Below, piece by piece: positions 39,521 to 45,710 of a stretch of 64,000 bases of DNA. The translations under genes were made by a program, and so were the position numbers. The stretch is from Geomonas azotofigens (lineage in GTDB: Bacteria > Desulfobacterota > Desulfuromonadia > Geobacterales > Geobacteraceae). Where the stretch lies: assembly GCF_018919395.1 (NCBI RefSeq), contig NZ_JAHLME010000005.1, positions 1-64,000 on the forward strand, written 5' to 3'. Under the pieces are notes generated by a model that made no database searches, was not told the origin of the DNA, and saw only the letters and a program-made list of their open reading frames with translations. The stretch's first letter is position 1. Every line of letters starts with the position of its first letter.

Positions 39521-39709
39521 TCAGCGCCAACTGATACAGTTGACCGGGCAGCTGTCAATGGCCTGTTGGATCTTCTCGCTGTCTCCGCCCCCCTGCCCCT
39601 GCACCTCCGAGACCCCGTCCCCGTTCAGACGGAACACCTCGGGCAGAATGCTCACGCAGAGCCCGCACCCTATGCAGACTCGTTGGTCGACGTACACCTG
39701 GCTCGGCAT
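39521..39709 (-). CDS. Small [4Fe-4S] ferredoxin
   Basis: A 62-residue single-cluster ferredoxin. VCIGCGLCVSILPEVF supplies three Cys and the C-terminal SCPVNCISW the fourth. This is the small ferredoxin type used as an electron carrier by many anaerobes. It lies 148 bases downstream of the DUF1540 gene on the same strand as hgcAB, and could serve as donor for reductive reactions nearby, but no direct link is visible. Confidence 0.9.
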   Translation of the reverse strand: MPSQVYVDQRVCIGCGLCVSILPEVFRLNGDGVSEVQGQGGGDSEKIQQAIDSCPVNCISWR

Positions 39710-39857: not shown

Positions 39858-40157
39858 TTATCTGGGTTTGTAGGTGAAGCAGTCGGGATGAGACTCGTGC
39901 ATGCCGACGTCGACGGCGGGAGCCGTGCACTCGAGGGACCGGTTGTAGCTGCAGTTCTCCACCTTGCAGGCGCCGATGCCCCCCTGGACGTCGATGATCC
40001 CCCCCCTCTGGCTCCCCTGCAGGAAGGTGTCGCACTCGGGGCAGGCGTCGTCAGCCCCCCCGACCGTGATGGCGAGCGTGTGACAGGAGTTGTGCTTGTT
40101 GTAGGCGCACTGCGTTACGTTGCAGGAACTGATTTTCACCATCTGCTTCTCTTGCAT
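39858..40157 (-). CDS. Tandem DUF1540 Cys-rich protein
   Basis: A 99-residue protein with two DUF1540 units: SSCNVTQCAYNKHNSCH with ACPECDTF, and GACKVENCSYNRSLEC with PDCFTY. Each unit has C-x4-C-x2-Y-N-x4-C plus a later Cys. The fold probably binds metal. Function is unknown. AAAGGAGGCAGAC precedes ATG 40157; an upstream codon at 40190 has no site. It is downstream of hgcB on the same strand. Confidence 0.85.
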   Translation of the reverse strand: MQEKQMVKISSCNVTQCAYNKHNSCHTLAITVGGADDACPECDTFLQGSQRGGIIDVQGGIGACKVENCSYNRSLECTAPAVDVGMHESHPDCFTYKPR

Positions 40158-40235
40158 GTCTGCCTCCTTTTCGCGGCCCCCTTCGCGCATTAGGAGGTTT
40201 TAACAGACGTGGTTTGATAGTCAAGGCGTCCAGGC

Positions 40236-40532
40236 CTACCCGCAGCACCCCCCCCCGCCGTTGAAGCCGGGAATCTTGCGTTCCCTGAGCCACTCGTGGA
40301 TGAGGCCGCTGGCGCAGCCGACCCCGGCATCGACCTTCAGGGCGGCGGCGGGGCAGTTGAGCGCGCAGGCGCCGCACTCCATGCAGGCGTCGCGGTCCGC
40401 CACGACGGCCCGCTTTTGCGCCATGCGGAACACCTGGTGCGGGCAGACCTCGACGCACCTGCCGCATCCGACACAAAGGGAGCTTTCGAGCTCCAGCGTG
40501 GCCACCCCGGCCAGATATCGGAAACCTTTCAT
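40236..40532 (-). CDS. hgcB: Mercury-methylation ferredoxin HgcB
   Basis: A 98-residue 2[4Fe-4S] ferredoxin that reduces the corrinoid of HgcA and is essential, with HgcA, for Hg(II) methylation in known methylators. The start MKGFRYLAGVATLEL is HgcB-typical. The clusters are CVGCGRCVEVCP and CMECGACALNCP, the conserved extra Cys is in VGCAS, and the C-terminus ends in a vicinal Cys pair (GGGGCCG) thought to bind mercury. GGGAGGAGC precedes ATG 40532, 12 bases after the hgcA stop, so the two genes are one transcript. Confidence 0.95.
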   Translation of the reverse strand: MKGFRYLAGVATLELESSLCVGCGRCVEVCPHQVFRMAQKRAVVADRDACMECGACALNCPAAALKVDAGVGCASGLIHEWLRERKIPGFNGGGGCCG

Positions 40533-40543
40533 ATGCTCCTCCC

Positions 40544-41704
40544 TCAGGCCAGAAAGCGGCCGGCGATAACGACGATGAGCGCGGCGCCGAGGGCGCCCGC
40601 CATGATCGGCAGTCCCAGGCGCATCTCTTTCTTCACCCCGGACTTCGACGTGTAGGTGGTGCAGCCGGTGAAGTTGAGGGTGTAGAAGGAGGAAACCGCC
40701 GGAAGCGCCAGAAAGGACGCGAGCGTCGCCGCCCCTCCCCAGTTCGCCCCGCCGGCGAGGGCATAGAGGAGCGCGCAGTAGAGCCCCCCCGCAACCGCCC
40801 CCTTGATCGCGAAGCTCCGCCCCGGCAGCAGCGGCAACAAAACGGGGCCGACCGCGATGCCGGTGAAGACCGCCCCCAAAACGGAGAGGGCGGCGGCGGC
40901 CGCGGCATCCGCCCCCCACAACAGCCGGGCCGCGAGGTAGATGAGCGCCGTCGCCGGGGCCACCGGCTTGGCCGCCAGGACCAGTTCCACCGGGACCAGC
41001 ACCAGGCGGTCGTACCAGGTGAAGCGGAGCTCGCGCATGGCGGGGGTCGCCGCACCCTGGTCCAGGTACGCGGGAAGGTCGTCGGCGCGCACGGTGGCGT
41101 AGACCACCTCGAAGCCGCTTCTTTGCCTGACCCGGTGCGCCGCCACGCCGGCCGCACCCAGGATGGGAAGGATGAGACGCCGGTGGCTCACCACCTGGGC
41201 GAGCCCGCTCGCCGCGATGCGGCGCACCAGCTCGCCGGTGCCGAAGGTCCCCTTCCCCGCCGCGCACCAGACGTTGATGCCGTAGGTCTCCAGGACCAGG
41301 AGCCAGACGTCGCGGCCGGAGAGCGCCCGGCGCACGATGTCGTAGCTCATCTTGTAGTTGGCGGTCACCACGACCGGCGCCTCGGCATCGGGCTCACCGA
41401 CGGCGTAGAGGCCGGGGGGGACCATGAAGGTCATCCTGTTGATGCCCCAGCGCGCGAGGCAGGCGCCCAGGTGGTCGCTCCAGGTCAGGCTCCCGCTGAT
41501 CCGCGCTGCCCGGCCGCTGCCGGCCGGAATCCACCCCAGGAAACCGGGGACTTTTTCGCTGATCTCTCCGCCGCCGGCGGAGGTGGGAGGGCCTCAGCAG
41601 GGGGGCGCATCGGGGTTGGCGCCGGTTTGTGGCGCGCAGGAGGAGGGAGCCGGCTGCTTCACCTCGACCTTCTTGAACCGGCGCGTCTTGATCTCGTCGC
41701 TCAC
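40544..41704 (-). CDS. hgcA: Mercury-methylation corrinoid protein HgcA with in-frame UGA (putative selenoprotein)
   Basis: HgcA transfers a methyl group from a protein-bound corrinoid to Hg(II) at the membrane. The cap-helix motif NVWCAAGKGTFG is intact (Cys147 as the lower cobalt ligand) and five C-terminal TM helices follow. Read from GTG 41704, which has GGAGG and a GTGA overlap with the arsR stop, the protein is 386 residues with one UGA at codon 37 (41596-41594) after Cys36. The frame continues past it with VPGFLGWIPAGSG and RWGINRMTFMVPPGLYAVG, homologous to other HgcA N-termini. The first ATG after the UGA (41434) would remove that conserved part. A 17-nt hairpin begins 11 nt after the UGA. 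I infer Sec37, which makes a Cys-Sec pair. The alternatives are a genuine stop with internal initiation, or a sequence error. Confidence 0.85.
41566..41582 (-). promoter_or_regulatory. bSECIS-like hairpin in hgcA
   Basis: CTCCGCC-GGC-GGCGGAG, a 17-nt hairpin starting 11 nt after the UGA, with the loop 18 nt away and G first in the loop. This fits the spacing rule for bacterial SECIS elements (16-37 nt from UGA to loop). The core TCCGCC/GGCGGA pairing is shared with the cytochrome hairpin at 55213. Confidence 0.6.
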
Positions 41705-42099
41705 GCGTCACCTCCAGCGGGGGCACGCCCCGTCATATTCGTTTTTTCGGATTCAACCTCGGCACAGCAGGAACCGTCCCTCAGCTCCCGGAGCCGCACA
41801 AGGTCCGCACGGGCCGTGTCGGTGACCAGGAGGAAGGTGCGCAGCACCGGGACCAGGAACTGCTGCACCGGCTCCAGCGACGCGTTGATCGAGTAGTGGT
41901 TCCAGGCCCCCATCCTTCTCCCCTTGAGCCATCCCGCATGCTTCAGGATGGAAAGCTGGCGGGAGACGGTCGACTGGGGGAGTTGCAGGGCGGCCACCAG
42001 GTCGCAGACGCAAAGCTCTCCGCCTTGCAGCAGGAGCGCCAAAAGGCGCAGGCGGGTCTGGTCGTCCAGGGATTGGAACAGCAGGGCGAGGTTTTCCAT
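41701..42099 (-). CDS. ArsR/SmtB-family metalloregulator of the hgc operon
   Basis: A 132-residue winged-helix repressor. LQGGELCVCDLVAALQLPQS holds the Cys-Val-Cys metal site on the recognition-helix side, as in As(III)-responsive ArsR, followed by TVSRQLSILKHAGWL. A C-terminal SCC pair adds a possible metal ligand. ATG 42099 follows the candidate -10 by six bases and lacks a Shine-Dalgarno site, so the mRNA may be leaderless. Its stop overlaps the GTG of hgcA (GTGA), so the genes are coupled. ArsR-family genes next to hgcA are known in other methylators. The inducer could be arsenic, mercury or another soft metal. Confidence 0.93.
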   Translation of the reverse strand: MENLALLFQSLDDQTRLRLLALLLQGGELCVCDLVAALQLPQSTVSRQLSILKHAGWLKGRRMGAWNHYSINASLEPVQQFLVPVLRTFLLVTDTARADLVRLRELRDGSCCAEVESEKTNMTGRAPAGGDA

Positions 42100-42169: not shown

Positions 42170-42197
42170 AACATGAAGCAAGGTTCAGCTTACCCCG

Positions 42198-45100
42198 TTA
42201 GGGGGTGATGGTGGCCTGCATGTACCCTACCTGGACACCGGAGTTGAAGCAGTAGATCTTGATGATCTTCTGCGTGGTGGTGGTGTAGGTATGGTTCAGG
42301 GTCAGCGGGTCGGTGACGCCGCTGGTCAGGGTGGTGGTCCCGCCGTCGCCCCAGTAGACCTTGACCTGGTTGGTGCCACTCGGAAGGTTCGAGAAGGTGG
42401 CTTTGCGCAGGGCGTGGTCCCAGGCGATGGATACCGGCGGCACGATGGCGTTCACCGTGACGTAGGTGCTGGCCGTCTTGCCTTCCTCGTCGACGACGGT
42501 GAGGGTGACGGTCTTGCTGCCGGTGGTGGTGAACTTCACCTTGGCGTCGGTCCGGGAGTTGGCGTTGGTGATGACGGCAGCGGCGTCGTTGGTGCTCCAG
42601 GTGTAGGTGACGGTACCGACCGGGTTGTTGCCGGCGTCGACCTGGGCTAGTGCCGCGGTGACGGCGTGGTCGGCGCCGGTTGCCCACTGTACCCCCATCT
42701 GGGCCGCGTCGTCGTCGGCAAGCGGGGTGTTGATGACCGCCTGCGGCGCGATGCCGATGCCGTAGTCGGACACGTTGGTGGACAGGGCGTTCAGGTAGCC
42801 GACATAGGCGTCGCGGGTGGCGTAGCTGTTGGCGCCGCGCACGATCGGGTCGGCCTTGTAGACCTTCCCTTTCAGCCCCAGCGGGGCGGAGTCGGTCTGC
42901 GGCGAGATGCGGATCTCCTTGCCCGCGGCCGCGGTGATGGTGAGCGCGCCGCCAGCCTCGGTGACGGTGAAGTCGGAGTTGGTGGTGAAGCTCGCCGGCA
43001 GGGCGGCCAGTACCTCGGCCATGCTGGTGGCGTTGTCCTTGCCCAGCTGTGCGCTGCGGAAGGTGATGTGCCCCACGTTGGTGTCGCCGGCCGGACGGAC
43101 CTCGACCTTGATCAGCCACCCCTTGGTGGAGGTCGCCTTGGACTTGACGGCATCCTGGGCGGGAACGCCGGTCGGGGTGGCGCAGAAGAACGGGCTGGTC
43201 GGGCCGGAGCAGACCGCGGCCGGGGCGGAACCGGCGATGGTGGTGTACCAGGCGGTGTCGCGGGTCTGGAAGTTCGCCTCGTAGATCACCTCGCTCCTGT
43301 CGATGTTGCGCAGGGTCTGGTTATCCGCGGCGGCGGTGTTGTTCACGTACGGGCCGTCGAACCTGGTCAGCAGGGTGACCGGAACGGTCCTGTCCCCCTT
43401 CTTGGTGACGACGCTCGGGTGCGAGTCGGTGGTGTCGGCCAGGCCGTTGACCTTGGTGAAGGTGGTGACCTGGTTGGAGTAGAAGCGGAACTTGTTCTTG
43501 CCGGTGGTGTCCACGCCGCTCATGTTGCCCAGGATCGGGTAGGCGCCGTTGTAGAACCCTTTGTTGGCGCCGTGGCAGTCGGTGCAGCCACCTTTACCCC
43601 ATGCCATCTTCTTGATCGGGGCGATGTTGTGGCTCGCCTTGAAGGGGACCATGAGGAACGACATCTTGGGAATCAGCTTGTAGGTGTTGGTGGGGTCGCT
43701 GACGCCGAGAAGCTGCTTCAGGCCGCCCGGGTAGGTGCCGGTGCCGGTGGAGGCGGTGCCGAGGTTGTCGCCGTTGACCCTGGCGTAGAGGGAGGTCATC
43801 TCGGTCTCGTTGACCCAGCTGCCGTCCGCGTTTTGCTCCATGGTCACGGCCTTGGCGCCCGCGGCGTTGTTCAGGTCGTTGATGTGGGTCTGCAGCAGGG
43901 TGTCCATGCCGGCGTTACGGCCGTCGTTGTTGGCGTCCAGGCCGCCGTTGGCGGCATCCATGCCGTTCATGTCGCGCAGGAACGAGGAAGTGAGCAGGTT
44001 CGCGCCGTAGAGCTTGCCGTTGTTCCAGTACAGGGCATTGCCGGCGGTGCCGGCCATGTCGCGGGCGACCTGCGGCTCGTCGTGCAGCGCCACGCGTCCT
44101 TCGGCGTCGGCGCCGGTGCCGTCAACCATGGCGCCGCCGTCAAACTCCTTGCTGATGTGGCAGGCGGTGCAGTCCATGATGTCCATGTGGCTGGCCGGAG
44201 CGCCGTTTTTGTCGTAGGCGATCTTGGCGGTCAGCCCCTTGGCGGCGTGCATGGAAGCGGAGTTGGGCGCGCCGTAGGTGGGCCAGGTCGGGGTGCCGGT
44301 CGGCTCGTGGCAGTCGGTGCAGTGCTTGAAGGCGACCGTGTCGAGCTTGTTCCACATGGCGTCGAAATCGGAGGCGCCACCCTTGGCCGGGTCGCACAGA
44401 CCGAGCTTGGTCTCGGTGACCAGGCCGGAAGTGCCGACCTGCGGGTTGGCGACGTCCTTTCTCTGGTGGCAGGCCATGCAGCCCAGGCTGTAGTGGACTT
44501 CCTGCCCTTCCAGCCACTGCTCGCCGCGCTTTTTCCAGTCGACGTTGTACTGCGACTGGTGGCAGGAGGAGCAGTTGCTGGAGGCCGGCTTGCTGTTCAG
44601 GCTGGCGCTCAGGTCGACGTAGAGCTTGCCGGAGGCGTTGGTCTTGACGGTGGTGTAGTTGTAGAAGACCTGGGTGCCGCTGGCGACGGAGTTGACCAGC
44701 TTGGCGCCGACGGCGCGGGAGGCGTCGAACTCGCCCTTGCGCACGGCTTCCTTGCGGGCCGCCCAGTCGTAGCCGGTCTGGTGGCACATGAGGCAGTCCA
44801 TCTCGAGGACGCCGGTCTGGGCGTAGTCCTGCTTGACGACATCGCCGCGCTTGGACACGTCCGGGTTGAAGATATCGATGAAGTAGTTCCAGGCGGTGAC
44901 GGCGGTGCCGAAGTCGAAGCTGCGCAGCGAGGTGCGGGATGCCGGATCGTAGGCGGCGCTCGGCATGTTGGCGTAGGCGTACTCGTTCATGCCGCCGCCG
45001 ACGTGGCACTCGGCGCAGTCGCGCATCACGCCCGCGTTGGAGTTGTCGACCTTCTGCTTATAGGCGGCCTGGCCGGCGCCGCTGTCGGCACCGAAGGAGA

Positions 45101-45710
45101 AGATCTCGAAGAACTTGCCGGTGGGGTTGGCCTGCTGGCCGGCGCCGGGGTTGGTCGAATCGACCAGGACGCTGCCGAAGGGAACCGTCACGAACTGGTT
45201 GGTGGTGCCGTCGTAGCTTGCGCCTGCGCCATCTTTGTATGCTCTCGCCAACTGGCGAGCGGAAGGCGGTCACCAGCTCCCGAAGTGGCCGGGGCTCTGC
45301 ACCCAGTTCTTGCCCTGGGGGCCCGCGCCCGGACGCCACTTGTCACCGGCGTTGGTGTAGGGGTTGAACGCGTCGGGGTTGGCCGGGTTGAAGCCCTTGA
45401 ACTCGTTGGCGCCCAGCTGGGTGTGGTAGCTGTGCCTTTCGATGTCGTCGTAGCTGAACTTGGCGTTGCCGACGGTGCTGTTACCGTGGCAGGCAACCCC
45501 GTTGTTGGTGCCGAAGCAGGTCTGCTTTACGCTGTAGGCGGGGGCGGCGGAGCCGTCCAGCGGACGAGCGATCTCCTGGCCCTGCCAGTCTTTAAGGATG
45601 ATGTTGGTGTGGTCGCTGGTGGCGGCCAGCGCCGTTCCCGCCGCGAGCCCTAACAGGACTGCGGAAGAGACGGCGGCCGACTTCACGACCTTCTTCCTCG
45701 AGTGGTGCAT
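42198..45710 (-). CDS. Giant exported octaheme c-type cytochrome A with in-frame UGA (putative selenoprotein)
   Basis: A 1170-residue exported cytochrome. A signal peptide (SAAVSSAVLLGLAAGTALA) is followed by an unusual C-x8-CH motif (CFGTNNGVACH), and at codon 147 a UGA stands in the context SGSW-UGA-PPSARQLA-type. After it the same frame runs on with seven CxxCH motifs (CAECH, CLMCH, CSSCH, CMACH, CTDCH, CTACH and CTDCH) and two PKD-like C-terminal domains (VYWGDGG). Start ATG 45710 has AAGGAGGCTACC. The downstream part alone has no signal peptide and could not be matured as a cytochrome. A hairpin with loop 16 nt after the UGA is present. The closest paralog has Ser at this position. Terminator at 42137. 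Confidence 0.85.
45244..45259 (-). promoter_or_regulatory. bSECIS-like hairpin in cytochrome A
   Basis: CTCGCC-AGTT-GGCGAG, starting 10 nt after the UGA at 45272-45270, with the loop 16 nt away and G second in the loop. Compared with cytochrome B, the first two base pairs differ by compensating changes (C-G for U-A, and U-A for C-G). Confidence 0.65.

What the first reader, a model, noticed from the sequence alone, without database searches (positions are those of the whole stretch)
41560..41704. hgcA carries an in-frame UGA: putative selenocysteine in a mercury-methylating protein
Seen: from GTG 41704, which overlaps the arsR stop and has GGAGG, the frame runs 36 codons to a UGA at 41596-41594 that directly follows a Cys codon. 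It then continues in the same frame into HgcA-like sequence (VPGFLGWIPAGSG, RWGINRMTFMVPPGLYAVG) and the cap-helix motif NVWCAAGK. A 17-nt perfect hairpin begins 11 nt after the UGA, with its loop 18 nt away, within the known bacterial SECIS spacing. Without readthrough the protein would begin at an internal ATG, and a coupled start codon with a conserved N-terminus would be wasted. Inference: HgcA here has Cys36-Sec37, which would bind Hg(II) far more tightly than Cys-Cys. I know of no described HgcA selenoprotein.
Basis: partly seen in the sequence, partly recalled or inferred. Interest (0 to 1): 0.95.

Follow-up and report, generated by a model that had tools for sequence, protein, structure and literature searches.

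The report
Selenocysteine-containing mercury-methylation protein HgcA
The gene for a protein that bacteria use to turn mercury into methylmercury carries a stop-like UGA codon that is almost certainly read as selenocysteine, a case already predicted in print for this protein family and here supported by conservation among relatives.

Summary
In detail: hgcA (40544-41704, minus strand) has an in-frame UGA at 41596-41594, directly after a Cys codon, with a 7-bp hairpin starting 11 nt downstream. Of 90 hgcA loci read from the order (of 98 places found), 80 have UGA and 10 a Cys codon at this site. In UGA forms the hairpin is kept by synonymous codon choice: 498 of 525 stem cells pair, against a resampled mean of 319 and maximum of 353. 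In Cys forms it is not (35 of 70, expected 34.7). The genome has selA, selB, tRNA-Sec(UCA) and a selD with a UGA of its own. Outside the order 37 of 106 loci have a UGA in the tail, 32 beside Cys. So Cys36-Sec37 is very probably made. It is not new: a 2026 review lists HgcA (motif CU) and HgcB as predicted selenoproteins, citing Haft & Gwadz 2023, and a 2024 PNAS paper says the same. What the Sec does, presumably Hg(II) binding or hand-off, is untested. Counter-evidence: two genomes listed 99% complete have the UGA form but gave no selA, full-length selB or tRNA-Sec match.

The parts
41701..42099 (-). arsR/smtB-family regulator gene; its stop overlaps the hgcA start (GTGA)
   Evidence: NF033788, 2.7e-22; the start at 42099 is my choice, the mechanical ORF begins at 42174
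41711..41715 (-). GGAGG, probable ribosome-binding site, 6 nt before the GTG
40544..41704 (-). hgcA, read through UGA: 386 residues with Sec37
   Evidence: NF040863 435.3 bits, cut-off 275; PF03599
41594..41596 (-). in-frame UGA, Sec37, after Cys36
   Evidence: UGA in 80 and Cys in 10 of 90 loci read in the order
41566..41582 (-). SECIS-type hairpin, 7-bp stem with GGC loop
   Evidence: synonymous-site test and pair exchanges
40236..40532 (-). hgcB ferredoxin; Cys (GVGC) at the place where some HgcB are listed as selenoproteins (GVGU); Cys-Cys-Gly C-terminus
   Evidence: (NF040864 126 bits)

Best explanation
hgcA here encodes a selenoprotein. Translation starts at GTG 41704, probably coupled to arsR. 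The ribosome meets UGA 41596-41594; SelB bound to the hairpin at 41582-41566 delivers Sec-tRNA(UCA), and translation continues into the corrinoid and membrane domains. The product has a short, probably flexible N-terminal tail with ProProCys36-Sec37-GlyPro, about 54 residues before the core that begins at ATG 41434. The likely role (inference) is that the Cys-Sec pair binds Hg(II) or CH3Hg+ and passes it to or from the corrinoid site and the Cys-Cys tail of HgcB; many relatives have Cys-Cys in the tail instead. Shown by sequence: frame, site conservation, Cys/Sec exchange, hairpin selection, machinery. Not shown: Sec in the protein, and its function. The confidence given is for the Sec identity, not for the mercury-binding role (about 0.6).
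For: Frame and UGA. selB 393.6 bits over cut-off 242, tRNA-Sec 74.9 bits over 47 and ARAGORN anticodon tca, selA 606.7 bits, selD 358.2 bits with one in-frame UGA. UGA in 80 of 90 loci read in the order and TGC/TGT in the other 10, same place C[U/C]GP. Stem: 498 of 525 cells paired over 75 distinct UGA rows, 0 of 2000 synonymous resamplings reach it; 70 of 75 rows have all five inner pairs (expected 5.5); pair types C-G/T-A/A-T exchange; Cys rows 35 of 70, expected 34.7. Outside the order 37 of 106 loci have a UGA in the tail (three labels corrected by hand) and 34 of these 37 have their best hairpin loop 17 to 22 nt after it. Three of the 10 Cys-form genomes of the order, G088, G104 and G112, gave no selA, full-length selB or tRNA-Sec match. 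Among six near relatives the codons before and after the UGA vary most at third positions (166 against 101 and 59 before; 220 against 111 and 93 after), and the five others have ATG at the GTG position.
Against: Hairpin energy is ordinary for this composition. G080 and G091 (both listed 99% complete) carry UGA hgcA with the hairpin (7 and 6 of 7 pairs) but gave no selA, full-length selB or tRNA-Sec match; G016 (78%) likewise. Seven of the 10 Cys-form genomes of the order do have selB. The phylogeny-aware test of UGA form against selB presence is not significant. Before the UGA, 154 of 249 changed codons among six near relatives are non-synonymous, so the tail is only loosely constrained as protein. 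69 of 80 UGA loci have some ATG/GTG/TTG between the UGA and the core, so a shorter product is possible there. No protein data.
Confidence: 0.95

Rival explanations
1. UGA is a true stop; a 36-residue leader peptide is made and HgcA starts at ATG 41434 or, in relatives, another internal codon.
For: ATG 41434 exists and the NCBIfam HgcA match begins only at residue 68. Genomes G080, G091 and G016 have the UGA but gave no Sec machinery match. 69 of 80 UGA loci have a possible start codon after the UGA.
Against: In the 10 Cys-form loci the same frame runs through this place without a stop; all 90 loci read have UGA or Cys there, none TAA or TAG; the stretch between UGA and ATG varies most at third positions; the hairpin is kept in UGA forms and not in Cys forms.
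Confidence: 0.04
2. Sequencing error or a broken gene at 41594-41596.
For: None found.
Against: The same UGA in 80 of 90 loci read in the order, among them 19 of 19 loci read from the window's own genus.
Confidence: 0.005
3. Sec is inserted but serves redox protection or structure rather than mercury binding.
For: No functional data seen; the crucial residues in published mutagenesis are C93 of HgcA and C73, C94, C95 of HgcB, as reported in a passage of PMC11588087, not the N-terminal pair.
Against: Vicinal Cys-Cys or Cys-Sec next to an organometal enzyme fits metal binding, and several Cys relatives have more than one CC pair in the tail. Inference only.
Confidence: 0.3

Closest known systems
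Selenoprotein form of HgcA, NF040863, motif CU (catalogued in PMC13188914, credited there to references 61 and 63, the latter Haft & Gwadz 2023)
   Same: Same family model, same CU motif, one Sec.
   Different: No difference found; I could not read Haft & Gwadz nor compare with the listed example WP_250697417.1 itself.
Cys-form HgcA (10 of 90 loci read in the order)
   Same: Same protein and site; CCGP.
   Different: Cys codon, hairpin pairing no better than expected.
Selenoprotein HgcB, NF040864, motif GVGU (PMC13188914)
   Same: Partner protein of the same pathway.
   Different: hgcB here is GVGC; Cys at this place in all 82 HgcB that the script could read among 90 loci, 8 not readable.

Membership tests
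HgcA (NF040863) | Family score over curated cut-off | tested here: met
   435.3 bits against 275
HgcA (NF040863) | Cap-helix motif NVWCAAGK and hgcB next door | tested here: met
HgcA (NF040863) | Methylates Hg(II) | not testable with these tools
   needs an assay
Bacterial selenoprotein | In-frame UGA replaced by Cys codon in relatives | tested here: met
   80 UGA, 10 Cys of 90 loci read
Bacterial selenoprotein | SECIS hairpin just after UGA, with G in the loop | tested here: met
   the loop rule is recalled; no dedicated SECIS program was available
Bacterial selenoprotein | selA, selB, selC, selD in the genome | tested here: met
Bacterial selenoprotein | Selenium in the protein | not testable with these tools
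   needs 75Se labelling or mass spectrometry

The most novel reading that the evidence does not exclude
In this order mercury methylation is largely selenium-dependent: a Cys-Sec pair on the HgcA tail is the Hg(II)/CH3Hg+ relay partner of the HgcB Cys-Cys tail, and some lineages that lost the Sec machinery kept methylation by switching to Cys.
Probability: 0.3. Interest if true: 0.75.

Novelty: already known. Interest (0 to 1): 0.42.

Why it matters
If Sec is made and used, selenium supply could affect methylmercury formation, and HgcA sequences or constructs that start at an internal codon lack the native tail. Cys-Sec in 80 of 90 hgcA loci read in one order of bacteria makes the role of the tail directly testable. 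The identity of the selenoprotein is already in print; the codon-level hairpin test and the counts here add support.

Tried and rejected
Hairpin energy as evidence: not unusual. Plasmid search with the protein: no match. Selenocysteine in HgcB here: rejected, GVGC; apparent U letters after the HgcB C-terminus in some relatives are ordinary UGA stops by my reading. The correlation of UGA form with selB: 3 of 116 UGA rows and 7 of 49 Cys rows lack selB, but the pair test on the tree does not reach significance. For that count three genomes with partial selB matches (G014, G022, G048) were taken as having it, and outside the order a genome was taken as lacking selB if it was not among the 353 rows, which scored only three candidates per genome. 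The named genome scan (80 loci) was used only for names of relatives; its loci entered no count. Structure prediction was not run.

Full report
Observation. The sequence is as described. On the minus strand a GGAGG (41715-41711) precedes GTG 41704, which overlaps the stop of an arsR-family gene. The frame runs 36 codons to UGA 41596-41594, directly after a Cys codon, and continues to the stop ending at 40544. The product scores 435.3 bits against the HgcA model NF040863 (cut-off 275) and the next gene scores as HgcB, NF040864. A 7-bp hairpin with loop GGC lies at 41582-41566. Its energy is not special against shuffles (z 0.08 to 0.28), so one sequence alone could not settle the matter.

Machinery. 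The window's genome has a selB over the cut-off (393.6 bits), a selA (606.7 bits), a selD (358.2 bits, with one in-frame UGA of its own) and a tRNA-Sec with anticodon UCA.

Relatives. A search of 141 genomes of the order gave 98 hgcA places in 96 genomes. I read 90 of these 98; the other eight were a second copy with the same score, a place near a contig end, or partial matches. At the site 80 have UGA and 10 have TGC or TGT. All 19 loci read from the window's genus have UGA. The four named loci nearest by HgcA are of Geomonas species (83 to 88% identity; records of the window's own genome may be left out there). Five near relatives have ATG where the window has GTG, and similar starts. In the 35 or so codons before the UGA third positions vary most (166 differences against 101 and 59 in six sequences compared pairwise), a coding signature, although 154 of 249 changed codons are non-synonymous; after the UGA the figures are 220 against 111 and 93.

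Hairpin selection. In 75 distinct UGA rows, 498 of 525 stem cells form a standard pair. Redrawing synonymous codons from each gene's usage (with pooled usage added) 2000 times gave mean 318.8, sd 9.3, maximum 353. The five inner pairs (second to sixth) are all intact in 70 of 75 rows, expected 5.5. Partners slid by one to three bases pair in 43 to 74% of cells against 95%. The first pair exchanges C-G for T-A, the second T-A for C-G or A-T. The 10 Cys rows show 35 of 70, expected 34.7. Rows are related, so these are not independent events. Of the 10 Cys forms, seven have lost the TS-GGG residues that follow the Sec and three keep TS[T/K]GGG, which suggests that in UGA forms these residues are kept partly for the RNA.

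Wider picture. In 395 genomes of the phylum, 117 had a match, 120 places. I read 108 of the 120, two of them already counted in the order. Of the remaining 106, 37 have a UGA in the tail region (32 beside a Cys codon), 40 have a Cys-Cys somewhere in that region and 29 neither; some of the 29 are truncated, masked or divergent. Three automatic labels were corrected by hand. In 34 of the 37 the best hairpin has its loop 17 to 22 nt after the UGA, often AGGT, AGGC or GGC; mean best stem 6.4 pairs against 5.2 at random places of the same genes, a modest excess. On a FastTree of 193 rows at least 12 UGA/Cys changes are needed, three within the order.

Against. Three UGA rows of 116 come from genomes without selB at the threshold used: G080, G091 (both listed 99% complete) and G016 (78%). 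selA and tRNA-Sec were also not found in them; the tRNA search scored 150 candidates per genome. Seven of 49 Cys rows lack selB, so most Cys-form genomes do have it. The tree-based pair test is not significant.

Prior knowledge. A review (PMC13188914; abstract, outline and passages seen) lists HgcA, NF040863, motif CU, WP_250697417.1 (its references 61 and 63), and HgcB, motif GVGU (63), as selenoproteins; reference 63 is Haft & Gwadz 2023. That paper is not held and I have not seen it. A PNAS 2024 paper (PMC11588087, passages) states that some HgcA and HgcB homologs may be selenoproteins. In PMC12013277 (passages) only the reference to Haft & Gwadz came up. The literature searches, of which I saw listings (25 of 443 papers), showed me no experimental test of Sec in HgcA, within that open-licence library only.

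Function. The structural model paper (PMC7305189, passages) suggests a possible role of the C-terminal Cys pair of HgcB in transfer of Hg(II) or methylmercury; no passage returned there concerned an N-terminal Cys pair of HgcA. I infer that the Cys-Sec tail of HgcA is a second such carrier. This is the untested part.

Verdict. The thing is real and, as a kind, already in print as a prediction. The most novel reading left open is that methylation in this order depends on selenium through this residue.

Noticed in passing
L073 (G080) and L074 (G091): UGA hgcA with the hairpin kept, in genomes listed 99% complete that gave no selA, full-length selB or tRNA-Sec match.
   Followed up: partly
window 39858-40190, minus strand: A DUF1540 protein with two matched stretches lies just downstream of hgcB, followed by a small 4Fe-4S ferredoxin at 39521-39709.
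   Followed up: no
window 42198-45251, minus strand: Large multihaem cytochrome, with MtrC/MtrF-like and cytochrome c7 matches, upstream of arsR-hgcAB.
   Followed up: no
L008 1501-2418: selD of the same genome is itself a probable selenoprotein (AAGUAAK).
   Followed up: partly
L213, L218, L224, L251: Outside the order some HgcA tails have Sec before Cys (UC) instead of CU.
   Followed up: partly
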